Shown piece after piece: positions 1 to 24,762 of a stretch of 25,983 bases of DNA. Every line of letters begins with the position of its first letter. Positions within the stretch are counted from its first letter, which is position 1. The stretch is from a virus. Position numbers and translations under genes: made by a program. The notes under the pieces are model-generated. The model did not search any database, was not told the DNA's origin, and was given only the letters and a program-made list of their open reading frames with translations. The DNA is taken from the IMG/VR virus record IMGVR_UViG_3300032220_000127, positions 1 through 25,983 of that record. One strand, written 5' to 3'.

Positions 1-329
1 TAATAGATAACACAATGACTAAACTAAGAAGTTTAGTTGAAGAATTAAAATGTGCAATGTTCGTTGTGTCACATTTAAAAAGACCTGAAGGCAAAGGTCA
101 CGAAGAAGGACAAGTTACTTCTTTAAATCAACTTAGAGGTTCTCATTCACTAGCACAGTTATCTGATGGGGTTATTGGTTTTGAAAGAAATCAGCAATCT
201 GAAAGCGATAGCAATGTAATGCAAGTTAGAGTTCTAAAGAACAGGTTTAGTGGAGACACTGGAATTGCGACAACATTAATTTACGACAAACAAACAGGAA
301 GGTTAGCAGAAGGTACATTTGATGAATAA
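1..329 (+). CDS. Primase/helicase, C-terminal fragment (T7 gp4-like), 5' end outside window
   Basis: This is the C-terminal end of the replicative hexameric helicase, which unwinds DNA ahead of the phage polymerase using NTP. The frame is open to the left edge, reading I-D-N-T before the first visible ATG at 15, so that ATG is internal and not a start. From memory it lines up with the end of T7 gp4: FVVSHLKRPEGKGHEEG, then LRGSHSLAQLSDGVIGFERNQQ, then RFSGDTGI and a short tail. These correspond to the last part of the RecA/DnaB-type ATPase core, including the segment that contacts single-stranded DNA and the arginine-containing NRFSGDTG end. The Walker A motif and any primase domain lie outside the window. 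T7's acidic C-terminal tail is much reduced here: after GTFDE the protein stops. The stop overlaps the next start in ATGAATAA. Confidence 0.9.
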   Translation, partial: IDNTMTKLRSLVEELKCAMFVVSHLKRPEGKGHEEGQVTSLNQLRGSHSLAQLSDGVIGFERNQQSESDSNVMQVRVLKNRFSGDTGIATTLIYDKQTGRLAEGTFDE

Positions 330-591
330 AGAAATATTAGGGAAATTTATATTAGGTTATCTAGTTGAGAAACCAGATTACTTAAGTCTGTCTTTAGAAC
401 AGAAGCAAGTTGTGTACGAAACTTGTCAAACTATTATGACTGCAATCTATAATGCAATTAGATATGAAAATGTTTTTCCAGTTATAATGTGTGGAGATGC
501 CGAAGCTAAGAAAGTAATTTCAAAAGCAATGTCAGGCATAGCAGAGTTTCTCCCAAGTACAGATAAAATAACAATAACTCAAATACATTAA
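322..591 (+). CDS. Hypothetical protein, 89 aa
   Basis: I do not recognise the family. The ATG at 322 overlaps the helicase stop by 8 bases (ATGAATAA), which suggests translational coupling. A TTG at 319 in the same frame is a less likely start. The protein is predicted soluble and mostly helical. An N-terminal hydrophobic stretch (KFILGYLV) and the central segment around YETCQTIMTAIYNAIRYENVF suggest a small helical bundle, and the C-terminus is short and polar. Its position between helicase and polymerase points to a role in replication or host takeover, but nothing in the sequence shows which. Confidence 0.7.
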   Translation: MNKEILGKFILGYLVEKPDYLSLSLEQKQVVYETCQTIMTAIYNAIRYENVFPVIMCGDAEAKKVISKAMSGIAEFLPSTDKITITQIH

Positions 592-593
592 TT

Positions 594-761
594 ATGGATA
601 ATTTTATTTTACAAAAATTTAGAGAACAAGTTGCTAGACAAATTGCAAGAGCTGAACGTATAAGAAATATTTTTGCAATAGTTATATTTATATTAGTTCT
701 AGTAGCTTTTGTTCACATCGTAACTAAACAATATAGTTTAGCTAAATATTTTTTTTTATAA
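594..761 (+). CDS. Small single-pass membrane protein, 55 aa (zero-frame product)
   Basis: The ATG at 594 lies two bases after the preceding stop. The N-terminal 25 residues are strongly basic (R and K in KFREQVARQIARAERIR). They are followed by one hydrophobic helix at about residues 27-42 (NIFAIVIFILVLVAFV). By the positive-inside rule the N-terminus is cytoplasmic and the C-terminus outside. The zero frame ends in Tyr-Phe-Phe-Leu-stop inside a run of nine Ts (749-757). That run forms the heptamer T TTT TTA directly before TAA, and the -1 frame then stays open to 898. I therefore suspect this is the short form of a longer protein. There is no enzyme motif. A role in lysis or envelope is possible but not shown. 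Confidence 0.65.
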   Translation: MDNFILQKFREQVARQIARAERIRNIFAIVIFILVLVAFVHIVTKQYSLAKYFFL

Positions 762-898
762 AAACATCTAACCACACTTATACTTTATCAATAGATAAAG
801 GTGAGACCTGCACTGAAGCAATAGAAAAATTTACAAAAAATAAATTAACGTACAATGGTGAGAGAATAGTTCTCACTGGTTGTTACAAAATAAATTAA
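746..898 (+). CDS. Probable -1 frameshift extension of the upstream membrane protein
   Basis: This frame is open for 50 codons and contains no ATG, GTG or TTG, so it cannot start by itself in the usual way. It begins inside the T9 tract at the end of the 594-761 gene. A -1 slip at 752-758 would add 46 residues starting IKTSNHTYTL and ending GCYKIN. The product would be about 101 aa: a basic cytoplasmic tail, one membrane helix, and a small external domain with two cysteines (GETC and TGCY) that could form a disulphide. The composition looks like real protein, with mixed polar residues and few repeats. Alternatives are transcriptional slippage on the T tract, a homopolymer sequencing error, or a non-canonical start such as ATA or ATT. 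It ends one base before the polymerase ATG. Confidence 0.5.
   Translation: MFFFIKTSNHTYTLSIDKGETCTEAIEKFTKNKLTYNGERIVLTGCYKIN
752..758 (+). other. Candidate -1 slippery heptamer U_UUU_UUA followed by UAA
   Basis: In the zero frame of the 594-761 gene the codons are TAT TTT TTT TTA TAA. Bases 752-758 therefore read T TTT TTA in exactly the X_XXY_YYZ register of known -1 frameshift sites, and a stop codon sits next to the A-site codon. I see no strong stem within 5-9 bases downstream. Weak hairpins lie farther on: AGGT/ACCT at 799-809, and a 7-bp stem with one G-T wobble at 858-876. Confidence 0.5.
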
Positions 899-899
899 T

Positions 900-2666
900 A
901 TGAAATTAGTAATAGATGTTGAAACAAATGGTTTCTTAGATAAATTAAACAAAGTTCATTGCTTAGTTTGTAAAGATACAGAAACAAATAAACTCTATTC
1001 ATTTAATCCTAAGAATATTAAAGAAGGTTTAGAATTAATTAAAAATGCTAAAACTTTAATCGGTCACAACATACTTTCTTTTGACTTACCTGCTTTAGAT
1101 AAAGTCTATGGTTTTAAATTTAATGGTGAAGTAGTTGATACATTATTATTAAGCAGACTAATTTGGACAAATAGAATTGAACAAGACTGTAAGTTAAATT
1201 CTTTCCCACCTAAACTTATAGGTAAACATTCTATTGAAAGTTATGGTTATAGATTTGGTTTATTAAAAGGTGATTTTAAAGATAAAGAAAATTTTCAAGA
1301 ATGGTCTCAAGCAATGCAAGACTATTGTGAGAGAGATGTAGAGATTACAGATAAGTTATTTAAACTTATTAAGAACCAAAACTACTCTAAAGAAGCTATA
1401 GAATTAGAGCATAAGTTTGCTTACTGGATTAAGAAACAAGAGGATTATGGGGTAGATTTTGATGTGACCGCTTCTGAGTGGCTATATCAATCCCTTACGA
1501 AAAGAAGGTTAGAGCTGGAACAAAAACTAGCTTTAACCTTCCCAAACTGGGAACGATTTGACAGGACTGTTAGACCTAAGAGAGACAACAAAACTTTAGG
1601 TTATAAAAAAGGTGTACCAGTTAAAAAGTATATAACTGAAGTATTCAATCCAAATTCAAGAGACCACATTGCTAATAGACTTCAAGTCTTATTAGGTTGG
1701 AAACCAAAACATTTTACCGCAACAGGTAAAGTAGAAATAAATGAAAAGATATTAAATGAACTTCCTTATCCTGAAGCTAAAATATTATCTGAGCATTTCT
1801 TAATACAGAAAAGAATTTCACAACTTGCAGAAGGTGAACAAGCATATTTAAAATTAACAAGGGACAATAAAATTTATGGAAAAGTTATCACCAACGGAGC
1901 AGTTACAGGAAGATGTACGCATCACTCGCCAAACCTTGCACAAGTACCAAGTAAAGACAGTTTATATGGTAGCGAATTTCGTAAGTTGTTTATTGCTCCT
2001 ACCAATATGGTTATGTGTGGTATTGATTTTTCTGGTCTTGAGCTTCGTGTCCTTAGTCATTACCTTTATAATTTTGACAACGGGGAATTTCAAAAGAAAT
2101 TACTTGAAGATGATATACATACCGCCAATCAACTTGCTCTCGGATTATCCTCACGTTCTCAAGCTAAAACTTTTATATATGCTTTCATATATGGTGCTGG
2201 AAGTAAAAGAATTAGCGAAATTCTTAACGTCTCTAATGCGGAAGCTGAAAGAATAAGAAAAAGATTTGTAGAAGTTTTACCATCTTTAAAAACTTTAATA
2301 GATGTAGCTCAAAATAAATTTAGAAATCTTGGCTATGTTAAAGGTATTGATGGAAGAAAACTTATATGTCGTGCAGAGTATAGTGTTTTAAATACTCTTA
2401 TCCAATCTGCTGGAGCTTTGCTGGTTAAGCAAGGAACAATAATTATTAACGACAATCTAATTCGTAATGGGTTTGTGTTTGGTCAGGACTACGCAATGGT
2501 TCTCCACATACATGATGAAATGCAATTTGTAGTTAGGAAAGAAAAGATAGAACATTTTAAAACTATAGCTTCCTTGACTTTTGAACTAACAAGAAAACAT
2601 TTTAATTTTAGATGTCCATTGGCAGGTGAAATGAAAATAGGAAGTAATTGGAGTGAAACACACTAA
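900..2666 (+). CDS. Family A DNA polymerase (T7 gp5-like) with 3'-5' exonuclease domain
   Basis: This is the replicative DNA polymerase, 588 aa against 704 for T7 gp5. The proofreading exonuclease domain covers about residues 1-160, with Exo I D6/E8 (VIDVETNG), Exo II around N57-D62 (GHNILSFDLP) and Exo III Y142...D146 (YCERDVEIT). In the polymerase domain, TGRCTHHSPNLAQVP (336-350) matches T7's template-binding TGRATH segment. Motif A is GIDFSGLELR with catalytic D376. Motif B is R419...K423...Y427...YGAG, where Tyr at 427 is the residue type that determines dideoxynucleotide sensitivity. Motif C is HIHDE with catalytic D539. The thumb between FPNW (214-217) and FNPNSRDH (249-256) has only about 31 residues, so the T7 thioredoxin-binding insertion is much reduced. 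The gene ends GSNWSETH, like T7's GPNWAICH, and overlaps the next start. Confidence 0.97.
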   Translation: MKLVIDVETNGFLDKLNKVHCLVCKDTETNKLYSFNPKNIKEGLELIKNAKTLIGHNILSFDLPALDKVYGFKFNGEVVDTLLLSRLIWTNRIEQDCKLNSFPPKLIGKHSIESYGYRFGLLKGDFKDKENFQEWSQAMQDYCERDVEITDKLFKLIKNQNYSKEAIELEHKFAYWIKKQEDYGVDFDVTASEWLYQSLTKRRLELEQKLALTFPNWERFDRTVRPKRDNKTLGYKKGVPVKKYITEVFNPNSRDHIANRLQVLLGWKPKHFTATGKVEINEKILNELPYPEAKILSEHFLIQKRISQLAEGEQAYLKLTRDNKIYGKVITNGAVTGRCTHHSPNLAQVPSKDSLYGSEFRKLFIAPTNMVMCGIDFSGLELRVLSHYLYNFDNGEFQKKLLEDDIHTANQLALGLSSRSQAKTFIYAFIYGAGSKRISEILNVSNAEAERIRKRFVEVLPSLKTLIDVAQNKFRNLGYVKGIDGRKLICRAEYSVLNTLIQSAGALLVKQGTIIINDNLIRNGFVFGQDYAMVLHIHDEMQFVVRKEKIEHFKTIASLTFELTRKHFNFRCPLAGEMKIGSNWSETH

Positions 2667-8189: not shown

Positions 8190-9143
8190 ATGTCAAACGC
8201 AACAGCTTCACGTCTTGGGCAAATCAATGCCGCAGGTGGAGTAAACGAGCTATTCCTTAAAGTATTCTCTGGTGAGGTTTTATCAGCTTTTGAACGTGAA
8301 AATTTAATGCTGAATATGACCAATGTCAGAAGTATTACTTCAGGTAAGTCTGCTCAGTTCCCAGTAACGGGGACAATATCTAGTTCTTATCATACTATTG
8401 GTAACGAAATACTCGGTACAGCAGTAAATAAGAATGAGAAAATAATAAATATCGATGATATGCTTTTAGCTAACGCATTTGTAGCTGAATTAGACGAACT
8501 TAAGAACCATTATGATGTTCGTTCTGTCTATTCAAAAGAAATGGGTCAAGCACTTGCAAAAACCATCGATAAGAACCTACTAAATCTAGTTGTATTAGCT
8601 TCTAGAGCATCTACTGCCAACGTAACTGGCGGAAACATCGGTGCAGTAATTACTGATGCAGATGCAGACACAAGTGCAAGTTCATTAAAGGACAGCATTT
8701 TTGATGCTATACAAAAACTAGATGAAAACGATGTACCTTCTTCTGATAGGTTTATCGTTGTAAAACCTGACCAATATTATCAATTATTAAATTTAGACAG
8801 TATTATGTCTAGAGATTTTAGTGCTAATGCTGGTGACAGGTCACAAGGTGTAATTACTACTATTGGTGGTGTACCTCTTGTTAAATCAAATACAGCAGTT
8901 GCGTCATTTACTGACCAATCTGCCGCTTCTACTGCTGGAACAAACAACACTTACATTGGAAACTTTTCTACTGTTCAAGCTGTTGTGTTCCACAAACAAG
9001 CTGTAGGAACTGTAAAGTTAAAAGATTTAGTTCTTGAAACTACTTACGACCCTAGAAGACTTGGAACACTAATGACTGCAAGAATGGCACTTGGTCATGG
9101 AATATTAAGACCAGAGTGTGCAGTATCAATTAAAACTTCATAA
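8190..9143 (+). CDS. Major capsid protein (T7 gp10-like)
   Basis: This is the HK97-fold coat protein, 317 aa against 345 for T7 gp10A. Conserved stretches include LFLKVFSGEVLSAFEREN (near 22-39), VRSITSGKSAQFPVTG, the IDDMLLANAFVAELDELKNHYDVRS region (matching T7's DAMNHYDVRS), DRFIVVKPDQYYQL, and near the end FHKQAVGTVKLKDLVLETTYDPRR and MALGHGILRPE. The gene uses noticeably more C-ended codons (AAC, ATC, GAC) than its neighbours, consistent with high expression. It has its own leader, a strong Shine-Dalgarno and a terminator-like hairpin behind it. I see no slippery site for a gp10B-type product. Confidence 0.97.
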   Translation: MSNATASRLGQINAAGGVNELFLKVFSGEVLSAFERENLMLNMTNVRSITSGKSAQFPVTGTISSSYHTIGNEILGTAVNKNEKIINIDDMLLANAFVAELDELKNHYDVRSVYSKEMGQALAKTIDKNLLNLVVLASRASTANVTGGNIGAVITDADADTSASSLKDSIFDAIQKLDENDVPSSDRFIVVKPDQYYQLLNLDSIMSRDFSANAGDRSQGVITTIGGVPLVKSNTAVASFTDQSAASTAGTNNTYIGNFSTVQAVVFHKQAVGTVKLKDLVLETTYDPRRLGTLMTARMALGHGILRPECAVSIKTS

Positions 9144-22986: not shown

Positions 22987-24762
22987 ATGACTAAAGCACG
23001 AGATATATCCAGTCTAATAGGAGCAGGTGGCATTATAGATAATTCTAAAATTACTTTAGATGCTAACGAGATACCTAATTTAGACACAGCTAAGATTACG
23101 ACAGGCGAATTAGCAAATGCTAGAATAGCAGATTTACCTGCAAGTAAAATTACTTCAGGTACTATTGCGTCTGCTAGAATAAATAACGCATCATTAAATG
23201 CGATTACAGCTTTACCTGAAGGAGTGGGTGGTGGAAATAACTGGTCTGCAAATAGACCAAATCCTAACGCATTATCTTTAACAGCAGGAAAAGCCGCATC
23301 AATGAGTGGTACAAACTTAGCATTAAAAACAATGCCTGTAGCAAATACTTTTGGAACTGAATATCTTTCATCACAACAAGCAGATTATTATAGTGGCATT
23401 TCTACAGATGGAAGTAGAGCTTTACACATTTCACAAGTTGTTAATGGCACTTTTAATAATGGAACTCCAACTAATATAACTTGGACATTTAGAGGTTATG
23501 CCATTTCTCAAAGTGCAAACCCAACTAGAGGAACTGTTACTGTAACGCAAAATGCTACCACTCCAGGTGTACCTACAAGCCAAAACCCTTATGGTTTAAT
23601 TTCTTTAACAATTTACCCTTTAGACGAAACAAGATTTTTAATTACAATAACATCTGCCGCAACTGGTTATGACTCTGAAGTTATTCCCTCTAGCGGTAGT
23701 AAAGTTCTTGTTGTTATTATAACTGTTGATGCTTCAGGAAATTGCACTAAAGGAACTTCCCTAGAACTTTCAGGTGGAAATGTAGGGGGATATGCAACTT
23801 GGAATTATGCCGCAAAAGTAAGTCGTGGAAATATTACAAATCCATTACAAGAGGGACAATTATTAATTTTTGCAAGAGCGAATAATTCTTATACAATATA
23901 TAAAATTCCATCTTCAGGAATGGTTATAACTTCTCATGGAACAGATACTAAAGTAAATAACTGGACTGGATTACAGTATGTGTTTTTTGATGAAACAGCA
24001 GGAGTAGTTTCTGGTGTAACAGATGATGGAAAATTAAGAACTGCTAACTGGACAAGTGGAACTACATTAGGAACACACACAGATAGTGCAACTTTTACTC
24101 CAAACTTAAACGGAGCTGTAACTTGGATTCCAATTACAAAACAAAAAATTATTGCAAGATATAATCAAACACCTTCTACACCAACTTATCGTGCATTTAC
24201 TTTGGCTACAAACGGAGTTCTTACTCATACAAGTACAAATGATACTCCAATGACAACAATAGAGAACTTTACTGAACCAGCTTATTTAGCATATTCATCT
24301 AATAGTACTGGAACGACAATGTTAAATTCTGCTTTTAAATCATTTTCTTTTGACCAAACAACAGTAAATTATTTAGGTCAAAACTTTGACACTCCAGTTG
24401 TTACAGGTCATTTTGGTTATCAATTTGTGGCAGTAAGAAACTTATCAAGTAATACATATTTAGTTTTCTATTATTCATCAACAGACAACTCAAACTATTA
24501 CATGCGTCAAAAATTATTTACTATTAATGCTTCAGCTTCAAATGCTTTTAATTTTGCAGGAATAGTTAAAACATCAGGTAGTGGTGCAACAGTTCCTTTT
24601 TTCATTAGAGGAATAGTTGGTGGATTTAGTGGTTTAACAACAGGTGCATCTTACAAATTAAAAAATGATTACTCAGGAGACTTAGTAATTTCTTCTGATG
24701 CTACAGCTATAGGAAGTACATTAGGTACAGCAGTAAGTGAAACTGAAATTAACTTAGGATAA
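22987..24762 (+). CDS. Tail fibre 2 / second receptor-binding protein
   Basis: The 591-aa product lacks the T7-type anchor. It begins MTKARDISSLIGAGG, a start I know from marine phage tail proteins, followed by linkers of the form I-T-x-G-x-x-x-x-ARI (about 37-65) like those inside fibre 1. From about residue 115 to the end it resembles the fibre 1 tip: PVANTFGTEYL against PVLNTFGTTRT, SANPTRG against SANPTNG, and at the end NFAGIVKTSG, GGFSGLTTG and GTAVSETEINL. It probably forms a second receptor-binding spike or a branch on fibre 1. Its upstream leader is short and A/C-rich without a Shine-Dalgarno. Confidence 0.85.
   Translation: MTKARDISSLIGAGGIIDNSKITLDANEIPNLDTAKITTGELANARIADLPASKITSGTIASARINNASLNAITALPEGVGGGNNWSANRPNPNALSLTAGKAASMSGTNLALKTMPVANTFGTEYLSSQQADYYSGISTDGSRALHISQVVNGTFNNGTPTNITWTFRGYAISQSANPTRGTVTVTQNATTPGVPTSQNPYGLISLTIYPLDETRFLITITSAATGYDSEVIPSSGSKVLVVIITVDASGNCTKGTSLELSGGNVGGYATWNYAAKVSRGNITNPLQEGQLLIFARANNSYTIYKIPSSGMVITSHGTDTKVNNWTGLQYVFFDETAGVVSGVTDDGKLRTANWTSGTTLGTHTDSATFTPNLNGAVTWIPITKQKIIARYNQTPSTPTYRAFTLATNGVLTHTSTNDTPMTTIENFTEPAYLAYSSNSTGTTMLNSAFKSFSFDQTTVNYLGQNFDTPVVTGHFGYQFVAVRNLSSNTYLVFYYSSTDNSNYYMRQKLFTINASASNAFNFAGIVKTSGSGATVPFFIRGIVGGFSGLTTGASYKLKNDYSGDLVISSDATAIGSTLGTAVSETEINLG

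What the first reader, a model, noticed from the sequence alone, without database searches (positions are those of the whole stretch)
594..898. Probable programmed -1 frameshift making a membrane protein with an external cysteine domain
The zero frame of a 55-aa membrane protein ends T TTT TTA TAA, a canonical slippery heptamer in the correct register with a stop right after it. The -1 frame then runs 46 codons to 898, has no start codon of its own, reads like real protein and contains a cysteine pair. Fused, it gives an N-in single-pass protein of about 101 aa just before the polymerase gene. I know of no described frameshift at this place in T7-like phages. No strong stem lies at the usual spacing, so transcriptional slippage on the T9 run is equally possible.
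Basis: partly seen in the sequence, partly recalled or inferred. Interest (0 to 1): 0.8.

Follow-up and report, generated by a model that had tools for sequence, protein, structure and literature searches.

The report
Frameshift-made membrane protein in pelagiphage relatives
A small gene next to the DNA polymerase of a group of Pelagibacter-type T7-like marine viruses makes a short membrane protein and, when the RNA polymerase or the ribosome slips on a run of eight or nine Ts, a longer form with an extra folded cysteine-pair domain; the layout is kept in every relative found, so it is a real but apparently undescribed use of a known trick.

Summary
ORF 594-761 (55 aa, one TM helix) ends T9-A-TAA, and the -1 frame runs on for 46 codons to 898, one base before the DNA polymerase start, with no start codon of its own. 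All 18 contigs covering the site (window included, 15 distinct sequences) put the zero-frame stop at codon 56 and keep 45-46 open codons in the -1 frame; none carries a fused frame. The tail evolves as protein in the -1 frame only: dN/dS 0.33 against 1.31 and 1.73 in the other frames; amino-acid changes depleted at combined P about 1e-8 against 0.7 and 0.9. So a fused product of about 101 aa is very probably made, and a sequencing error is excluded. The quoted heptamer T_TTT_TTA is not what is conserved: six distinct relatives have T8-C-R-TAR and one T9-G-TAA. The invariant is eight Ts, two variable bases and TAA/TAG. No stem near the site is conserved. Close relatives encode a T7-like RNA polymerase, and T7 RNAP inserts bases on T runs this short. 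Transcriptional slippage is therefore at least as likely as ribosomal frameshifting (my split about 55:40). Cellular function is unknown; a membrane-anchored, probably periplasmic domain is the best guess.

The parts
594..761 (+). Zero-frame ORF, 55 aa single-pass membrane protein (short product)
   Evidence: same length and stop position in 18 of 18 contigs
669..725 (+). Predicted transmembrane segment, residues 26-44 (IFAIVIFILVLVAFVHIVT)
   Evidence: Kyte-Doolittle mean 3.1 here, 2.3-3.3 in homologues
749..757 (+). Slip site: run of nine Ts; the first eight are invariant in all homologues; contains U_UUU_UUU (749-755) and, with A758, U_UUU_UUA (752-758)
759..761 (+). Zero-frame stop codon TAA (TAG in L041), directly after the last slip-site codon
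758..898 (+). -1 frame extension, 46 codons plus stop, encoding a small domain with a conserved cysteine pair
   Evidence: dN/dS 0.33 in this frame only; permutation P about 1e-8; AlphaFold2 mean pLDDT 90
850..886 (+). RNA hairpin near the end of the tail, just upstream of the polymerase start; a hairpin is predicted here in the window and all six homologues folded singly, in shifting register
   Evidence: mean folding z -2.1 over 13 sequences; individual folds; little covariation in the consensus fold
777..805 (+). Stem-loop about 18 nt after the slip site, present only in the window's own subclade
900..2666 (+). DNA polymerase family A, starting one base after the tail's stop codon; neighbour
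   Evidence: annotated so in relatives
319..591 (+). Upstream small gene of unknown function that abuts or closely precedes polA in relatives lacking the membrane gene; neighbour

Best explanation
The gene makes two proteins from one start at 594. Normal decoding gives a 55-aa single-pass membrane protein. A slip on the conserved run of eight or nine Ts moves decoding into the -1 frame and adds 46 residues, giving a form of about 101 aa whose extra domain carries a conserved cysteine pair and probably lies in the periplasm (inferred). That the fused form is made and selected for is strongly supported by sequence evolution. How the frame changes is inferred: I think the more likely route is transcriptional slippage, in which the phage's own T7-like RNA polymerase (or the host's) adds one U on the T run so that some mRNAs carry the extended frame, with ribosomal -1 slippage on U_UUU_UUU (and U_UUU_UUA where present) as the close alternative or a contributor. 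Cellular function, for example at the membrane of the infected cell such as superinfection exclusion, is a guess.
For: 18 of 18 contigs, from many metagenomes: zero-frame stop at codon 56, -1 frame open for 45-46 codons to the polA start, no fused-frame copy. dN/dS 0.33 in the -1 tail, 1.31 and 1.73 in the other frames; amino-acid changes depleted in the -1 frame in each of four disjoint pairs, combined P about 1e-8, against 0.69 and 0.93 in the other frames. Third positions vary most, 0.293 against 0.201 and 0.086. No canonical start that could give the tail. T8 invariant while the next two bases vary. Tail folds confidently, pLDDT 90. For slippage by RNA polymerase: close relatives encode a T7-like RNAP; T7 RNAP inserts on runs of four or more Ts, restoring up to 50% of in-frame expression on poly(T), and E. 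coli RNAP reaches 5-10% on T7/T8 (PMC6260861); no conserved stem within 45 nt of the site; unstimulated heptamers in E. coli reach at most about ten times a 0.05% background (PMC4066793), and U_UUU_UUU and U_UUU_UUA are much less shift-prone than A_AAA_AAG there (PMC5009743).
Against: No direct evidence of either product (no RNA-seq, ribosome profiling or peptides). The zero-frame stop is kept right behind the slip site in every homologue, which a ribosomal mechanism explains at least as well. T7 RNAP prefers poly(A) to poly(T) for insertions. The RNA polymerases here are those of SAR11-type hosts and their phages, not T7 or E. coli; their slippage is unmeasured, and the window fragment itself does not reach an RNAP gene. 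The invariance of the Ts is partly explained by the two Phe codons and low GC (TTC is 14% of Phe codons in the window). The homologues form one clade, so the number of independent lineages is small.
Confidence: 0.55

Rival explanations
1. Programmed -1 ribosomal frameshifting: tandem slippage of tRNA-Phe on U_UUU_UUU (invariant) or on U_UUU_UUA/G (T9 members), with the stop codon following the slip site as a pause.
For: Heptamer U_UUU_UUU is in register in all 15 distinct sequences and a stop codon follows one codon later in all. A hairpin about 90 nt downstream is predicted across homologues, and long-range stimulators 44-104 nt downstream (IS elements) or over 200 nt (T7 gene 10) are known (PMC5009743).
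Against: No conserved stem at the usual spacing; U-rich heptamers shift poorly in E. coli without stimulators; the canonical U_UUU_UUA is not conserved.
Confidence: 0.38
2. The tail is a separate small gene translated by reinitiation from a non-standard codon such as AUA at 758, which overlaps the stop codon.
For: An ATA or GTA codon overlapping the stop is present in all homologues; the genes are tightly packed and several lack ribosome-binding sites.
Against: No ATG, GTG, TTG or CTG in the -1 frame that could give the tail; GTA and ATA are not known bacterial starts of useful efficiency (own knowledge); it would not explain the T8 invariance.
Confidence: 0.03
3. Sequencing or assembly error in a homopolymer, or a pseudogene with a recent frameshift.
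For: Homopolymers are error-prone; a single contig could not exclude it.
Against: 18 contigs with T9-A, T9-G, T8-CA or T8-CG all keep the same frame relation; the tail is under purifying selection.
Confidence: 0.01

Closest known systems
Phage T7 gene 10A/10B (and T3) -1 ribosomal frameshift
   Same: T7-like phage; a -1 shift near the end of an ORF adds a C-terminal extension to part of the product
   Different: Capsid gene with a G_GUU-type slip site; here a membrane protein gene before DNA polymerase, a pure T8-T9 run and a stop right after it; no homology
Programmed transcriptional slippage on A/T runs (Shigella mxiE T9, Thermus dnaX A9, IS elements with 8-9 A)
   Same: Run of 8-9 identical bases, its length varying between 8 and 9 among homologues, joining two frames without an obvious RNA structure
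   Different: Those are bacterial genes transcribed by multisubunit RNA polymerase; here a phage gene in a clade encoding a T7-like polymerase; slippage not measured
HIV-1 gag-pol slip site U_UUU_UUA
   Same: The window and other T9-A homologues contain the same heptamer in register
   Different: No stimulating stem-loop at the right spacing is conserved; the heptamer itself is not conserved in the family
Cultured pelagiphages HTVC011P, HTVC025P, HTVC041P, EXVC018P
   Same: Same replication gene order: primase/helicase, small gene, DNA polymerase A
   Different: They lack the membrane/frameshift gene; the small gene abuts or closely precedes polA

Membership tests
Recoded (frameshift-fused) gene, mechanism open | Second frame under purifying selection as protein | tested here: met
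Recoded (frameshift-fused) gene, mechanism open | Second frame lacks its own start codon | tested here: met
Recoded (frameshift-fused) gene, mechanism open | Slip-prone sequence and frame break conserved among homologues | tested here: met
   T8 invariant and stop at codon 56 in all
Programmed -1 ribosomal frameshift | X_XXY_YYZ heptamer in register in all homologues | tested here: met
Programmed -1 ribosomal frameshift | Stimulator: stem or pseudoknot 5-9 nt downstream, or internal Shine-Dalgarno upstream | tested here: not met
   No conserved structure within 45 nt, no G-rich motif upstream; pseudoknots not modelled; a distant hairpin at about +90 nt is possible
Programmed -1 ribosomal frameshift | Shift shown on mRNA of unchanged length | not testable with these tools
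   needs an RNA and protein experiment
Programmed transcriptional slippage | Uninterrupted run of about 8 or more A or T in all homologues | tested here: met
   T8 or T9 in all 15 distinct sequences
Programmed transcriptional slippage | RNA polymerase able to slip on it | tested here: inconclusive
   T7-like RNAP encoded in close relatives; T7 RNAP slips on such runs (PMC6260861); this enzyme itself is unmeasured
Programmed transcriptional slippage | mRNA with extra or missing U | not testable with these tools
   no RNA reads available
Homologue of T7 10A/10B | The shifted gene is the major capsid gene | tested here: not met
   the major head protein gene is elsewhere, 8190-9143; the fused protein has no PHROG match

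The most novel reading that the evidence does not exclude
The slip site also sets the translation of DNA polymerase. polA has no recognisable ribosome-binding site and starts one base after the tail's stop, behind a predicted hairpin. In relatives without the membrane gene, the upstream gene's stop often abuts polA directly. Only ribosomes that read the shifted frame would then reach the polA start and couple to it, so slippage by the phage RNA polymerase would act as a throttle on replication. This would be a regulatory use of polymerase slippage in a T7-like phage.
Probability: 0.12. Interest if true: 0.8.

Novelty: new member of a known kind. Interest (0 to 1): 0.5.

Why it matters
Small recoded genes are missed by automatic annotation, because gene finders report only the zero-frame ORF. 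This one is kept across a clade of marine phages, is absent from the cultured isolates compared, and has clean internal variation (T9-A, T9-G, T8-CA, T8-CG). That makes it a good natural test of whether T7-like RNA polymerases use slippage on T runs as a programmed device. In the literature I could search I found no described case of this for a phage gene; the search was limited.

Tried and rejected
Single-frame fused homologues: none in viral contigs, phage records (tblastn) or bacterial genomes. Known families: no convincing PHROG or Pfam match for the fused protein or tail (best E 0.0057, in one member of six). Fold search of the tail model: no usable match in BFVD or PDB. A 3' stimulatory stem near the slip site: real in the window's subclade only. 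Consensus folding of the junction region: little covariation. T-run conservation alone is weak evidence, because TTT is the preferred Phe codon. T runs of 8 or more are not significantly depleted in the window's genes (1 observed, 2.9 expected), although runs of six or more and seven or more are.

Full report
What is there. The window is a 25,983-base virus record whose closest annotated relatives are T7-like pelagiphages (Autographiviridae). Gene order at its start is primase/helicase C-terminus (15-329), a small gene (319-591), the 55-aa membrane ORF (594-761), the -1 frame extension (to 898) and family A DNA polymerase (900-2666). The zero frame ends TAT TTT TTT TTA TAA; T9 lies at 749-757.

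Is it real? Scans of viral contigs with the gene, with the tail alone and with the polymerase gave 17 contigs besides the window that cover the slip site and the whole tail; with the window, 15 distinct sequences. In every one the zero-frame stop is codon 56, the -1 frame continues for 45-46 codons, and its stop lies 1 or 5 bases before the polymerase ATG. In the gapless set of 13, dN/dS in the tail is 0.33 in the -1 frame and 1.31 and 1.73 in the other two; for the first ORF it is 0.62 in its own frame. In four disjoint pairs, relocating the observed substitutions at random gives more amino-acid changes than observed in the -1 frame (combined P about 1e-8) but not in the other frames (0.69, 0.93). 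The -1 frame has no usual start codon that could give the tail. The tail is therefore very probably translated, and fusion to the membrane ORF is the only plausible route. Sequencing error is excluded.

What is conserved at the site. Eight Ts are invariant, followed by T-A, T-G, C-A or C-G and then TAA (TAG in L041). L041 is instructive: its membrane part is close to L023's, while its tail is only 35% identical to the window's tail, yet it keeps the T8 run, a stop, the open -1 frame and both cysteines.

How it works. The slip could happen in transcription or translation. Ribosomal: the heptamer is in register and a stop codon follows, but no stem near the site is conserved. A hairpin at about +90 to +130 nt has mean z -2.1 over 13 sequences, with little covariation. 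Unstimulated heptamers in E. coli reach at most about ten times a 0.05% background (PMC4066793), and U-rich ones are weaker than A_AAA_AAG (PMC5009743). Transcriptional: close relatives encode a T7-like RNA polymerase; T7 RNAP inserts on runs of four or more Ts with up to half of in-frame expression restored, and E. coli RNAP reaches 5-10% on T7/T8 (PMC6260861). One added U gives exactly the -1 frame. Length variation between 8 and 9 without loss of the frame relation resembles the slippage-using IS elements (PMC1088944). I therefore put transcriptional slippage at about 55% and ribosomal shifting at about 40%; both may contribute. The stated confidence of 0.55 covers the whole best explanation including this route; that a fused product is made at all I put at about 0.93.

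What the product is. Residues 26-44 are a strong transmembrane segment in all homologues tested. The charge bias favours the N-terminus inside but is small. The tail alone is predicted with mean pLDDT 90 as short strands around one helix. Its two cysteines are invariant, including in L041, which suits a disulfide in the periplasm (inferred). No family or fold match was found, so a function such as superinfection exclusion is a guess.

Context. The gene is found only in the clade whose polymerase is at least 77% identical to the window's. In relatives at about 50-65% polymerase identity the small upstream gene often abuts polA directly, or a different short cysteine-rich ORF lies between. In the window neither the membrane ORF nor polA has a recognisable ribosome-binding site. 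These facts allow, but do not show, that the slip also meters translation of polA.

Novelty. I found no description of this gene or of a frameshift at this place in the papers searched, a limited library. The device itself is known, so I call it a new member of a known kind.

Noticed in passing
window 850-886: Hairpin ending about 13 nt before the polymerase ATG, predicted in the window and all six homologues folded singly although the inner stem shifts register; it could affect polA translation or be a long-range frameshift stimulator.
   Followed up: partly
L057, L059, L063, L066, L071, L078, L082: about 100-170 nt before polA: Relatives without the membrane gene carry a different short ORF at the same place with zinc-ribbon-like cysteine pairs (RPKCDFCQKKSD...CGGCY).
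   Followed up: no
L041 2802-2939: The tail has diverged strongly (35% identity to the window) while the membrane part stays close to the L023 group; the stop is TAG. Suggests fast evolution or replacement of the external domain.
   Followed up: partly
window, coding strand: Runs of six or more, and of seven or more, Ts or As are rarer in genes than under synonymous shuffling (for T6 and longer: 14 observed against 20.9 expected), as if slip-prone runs are avoided.
   Followed up: partly
window 22987-24762: 591-aa ORF in the late region with no PHROG match at 1e-5.
   Followed up: no
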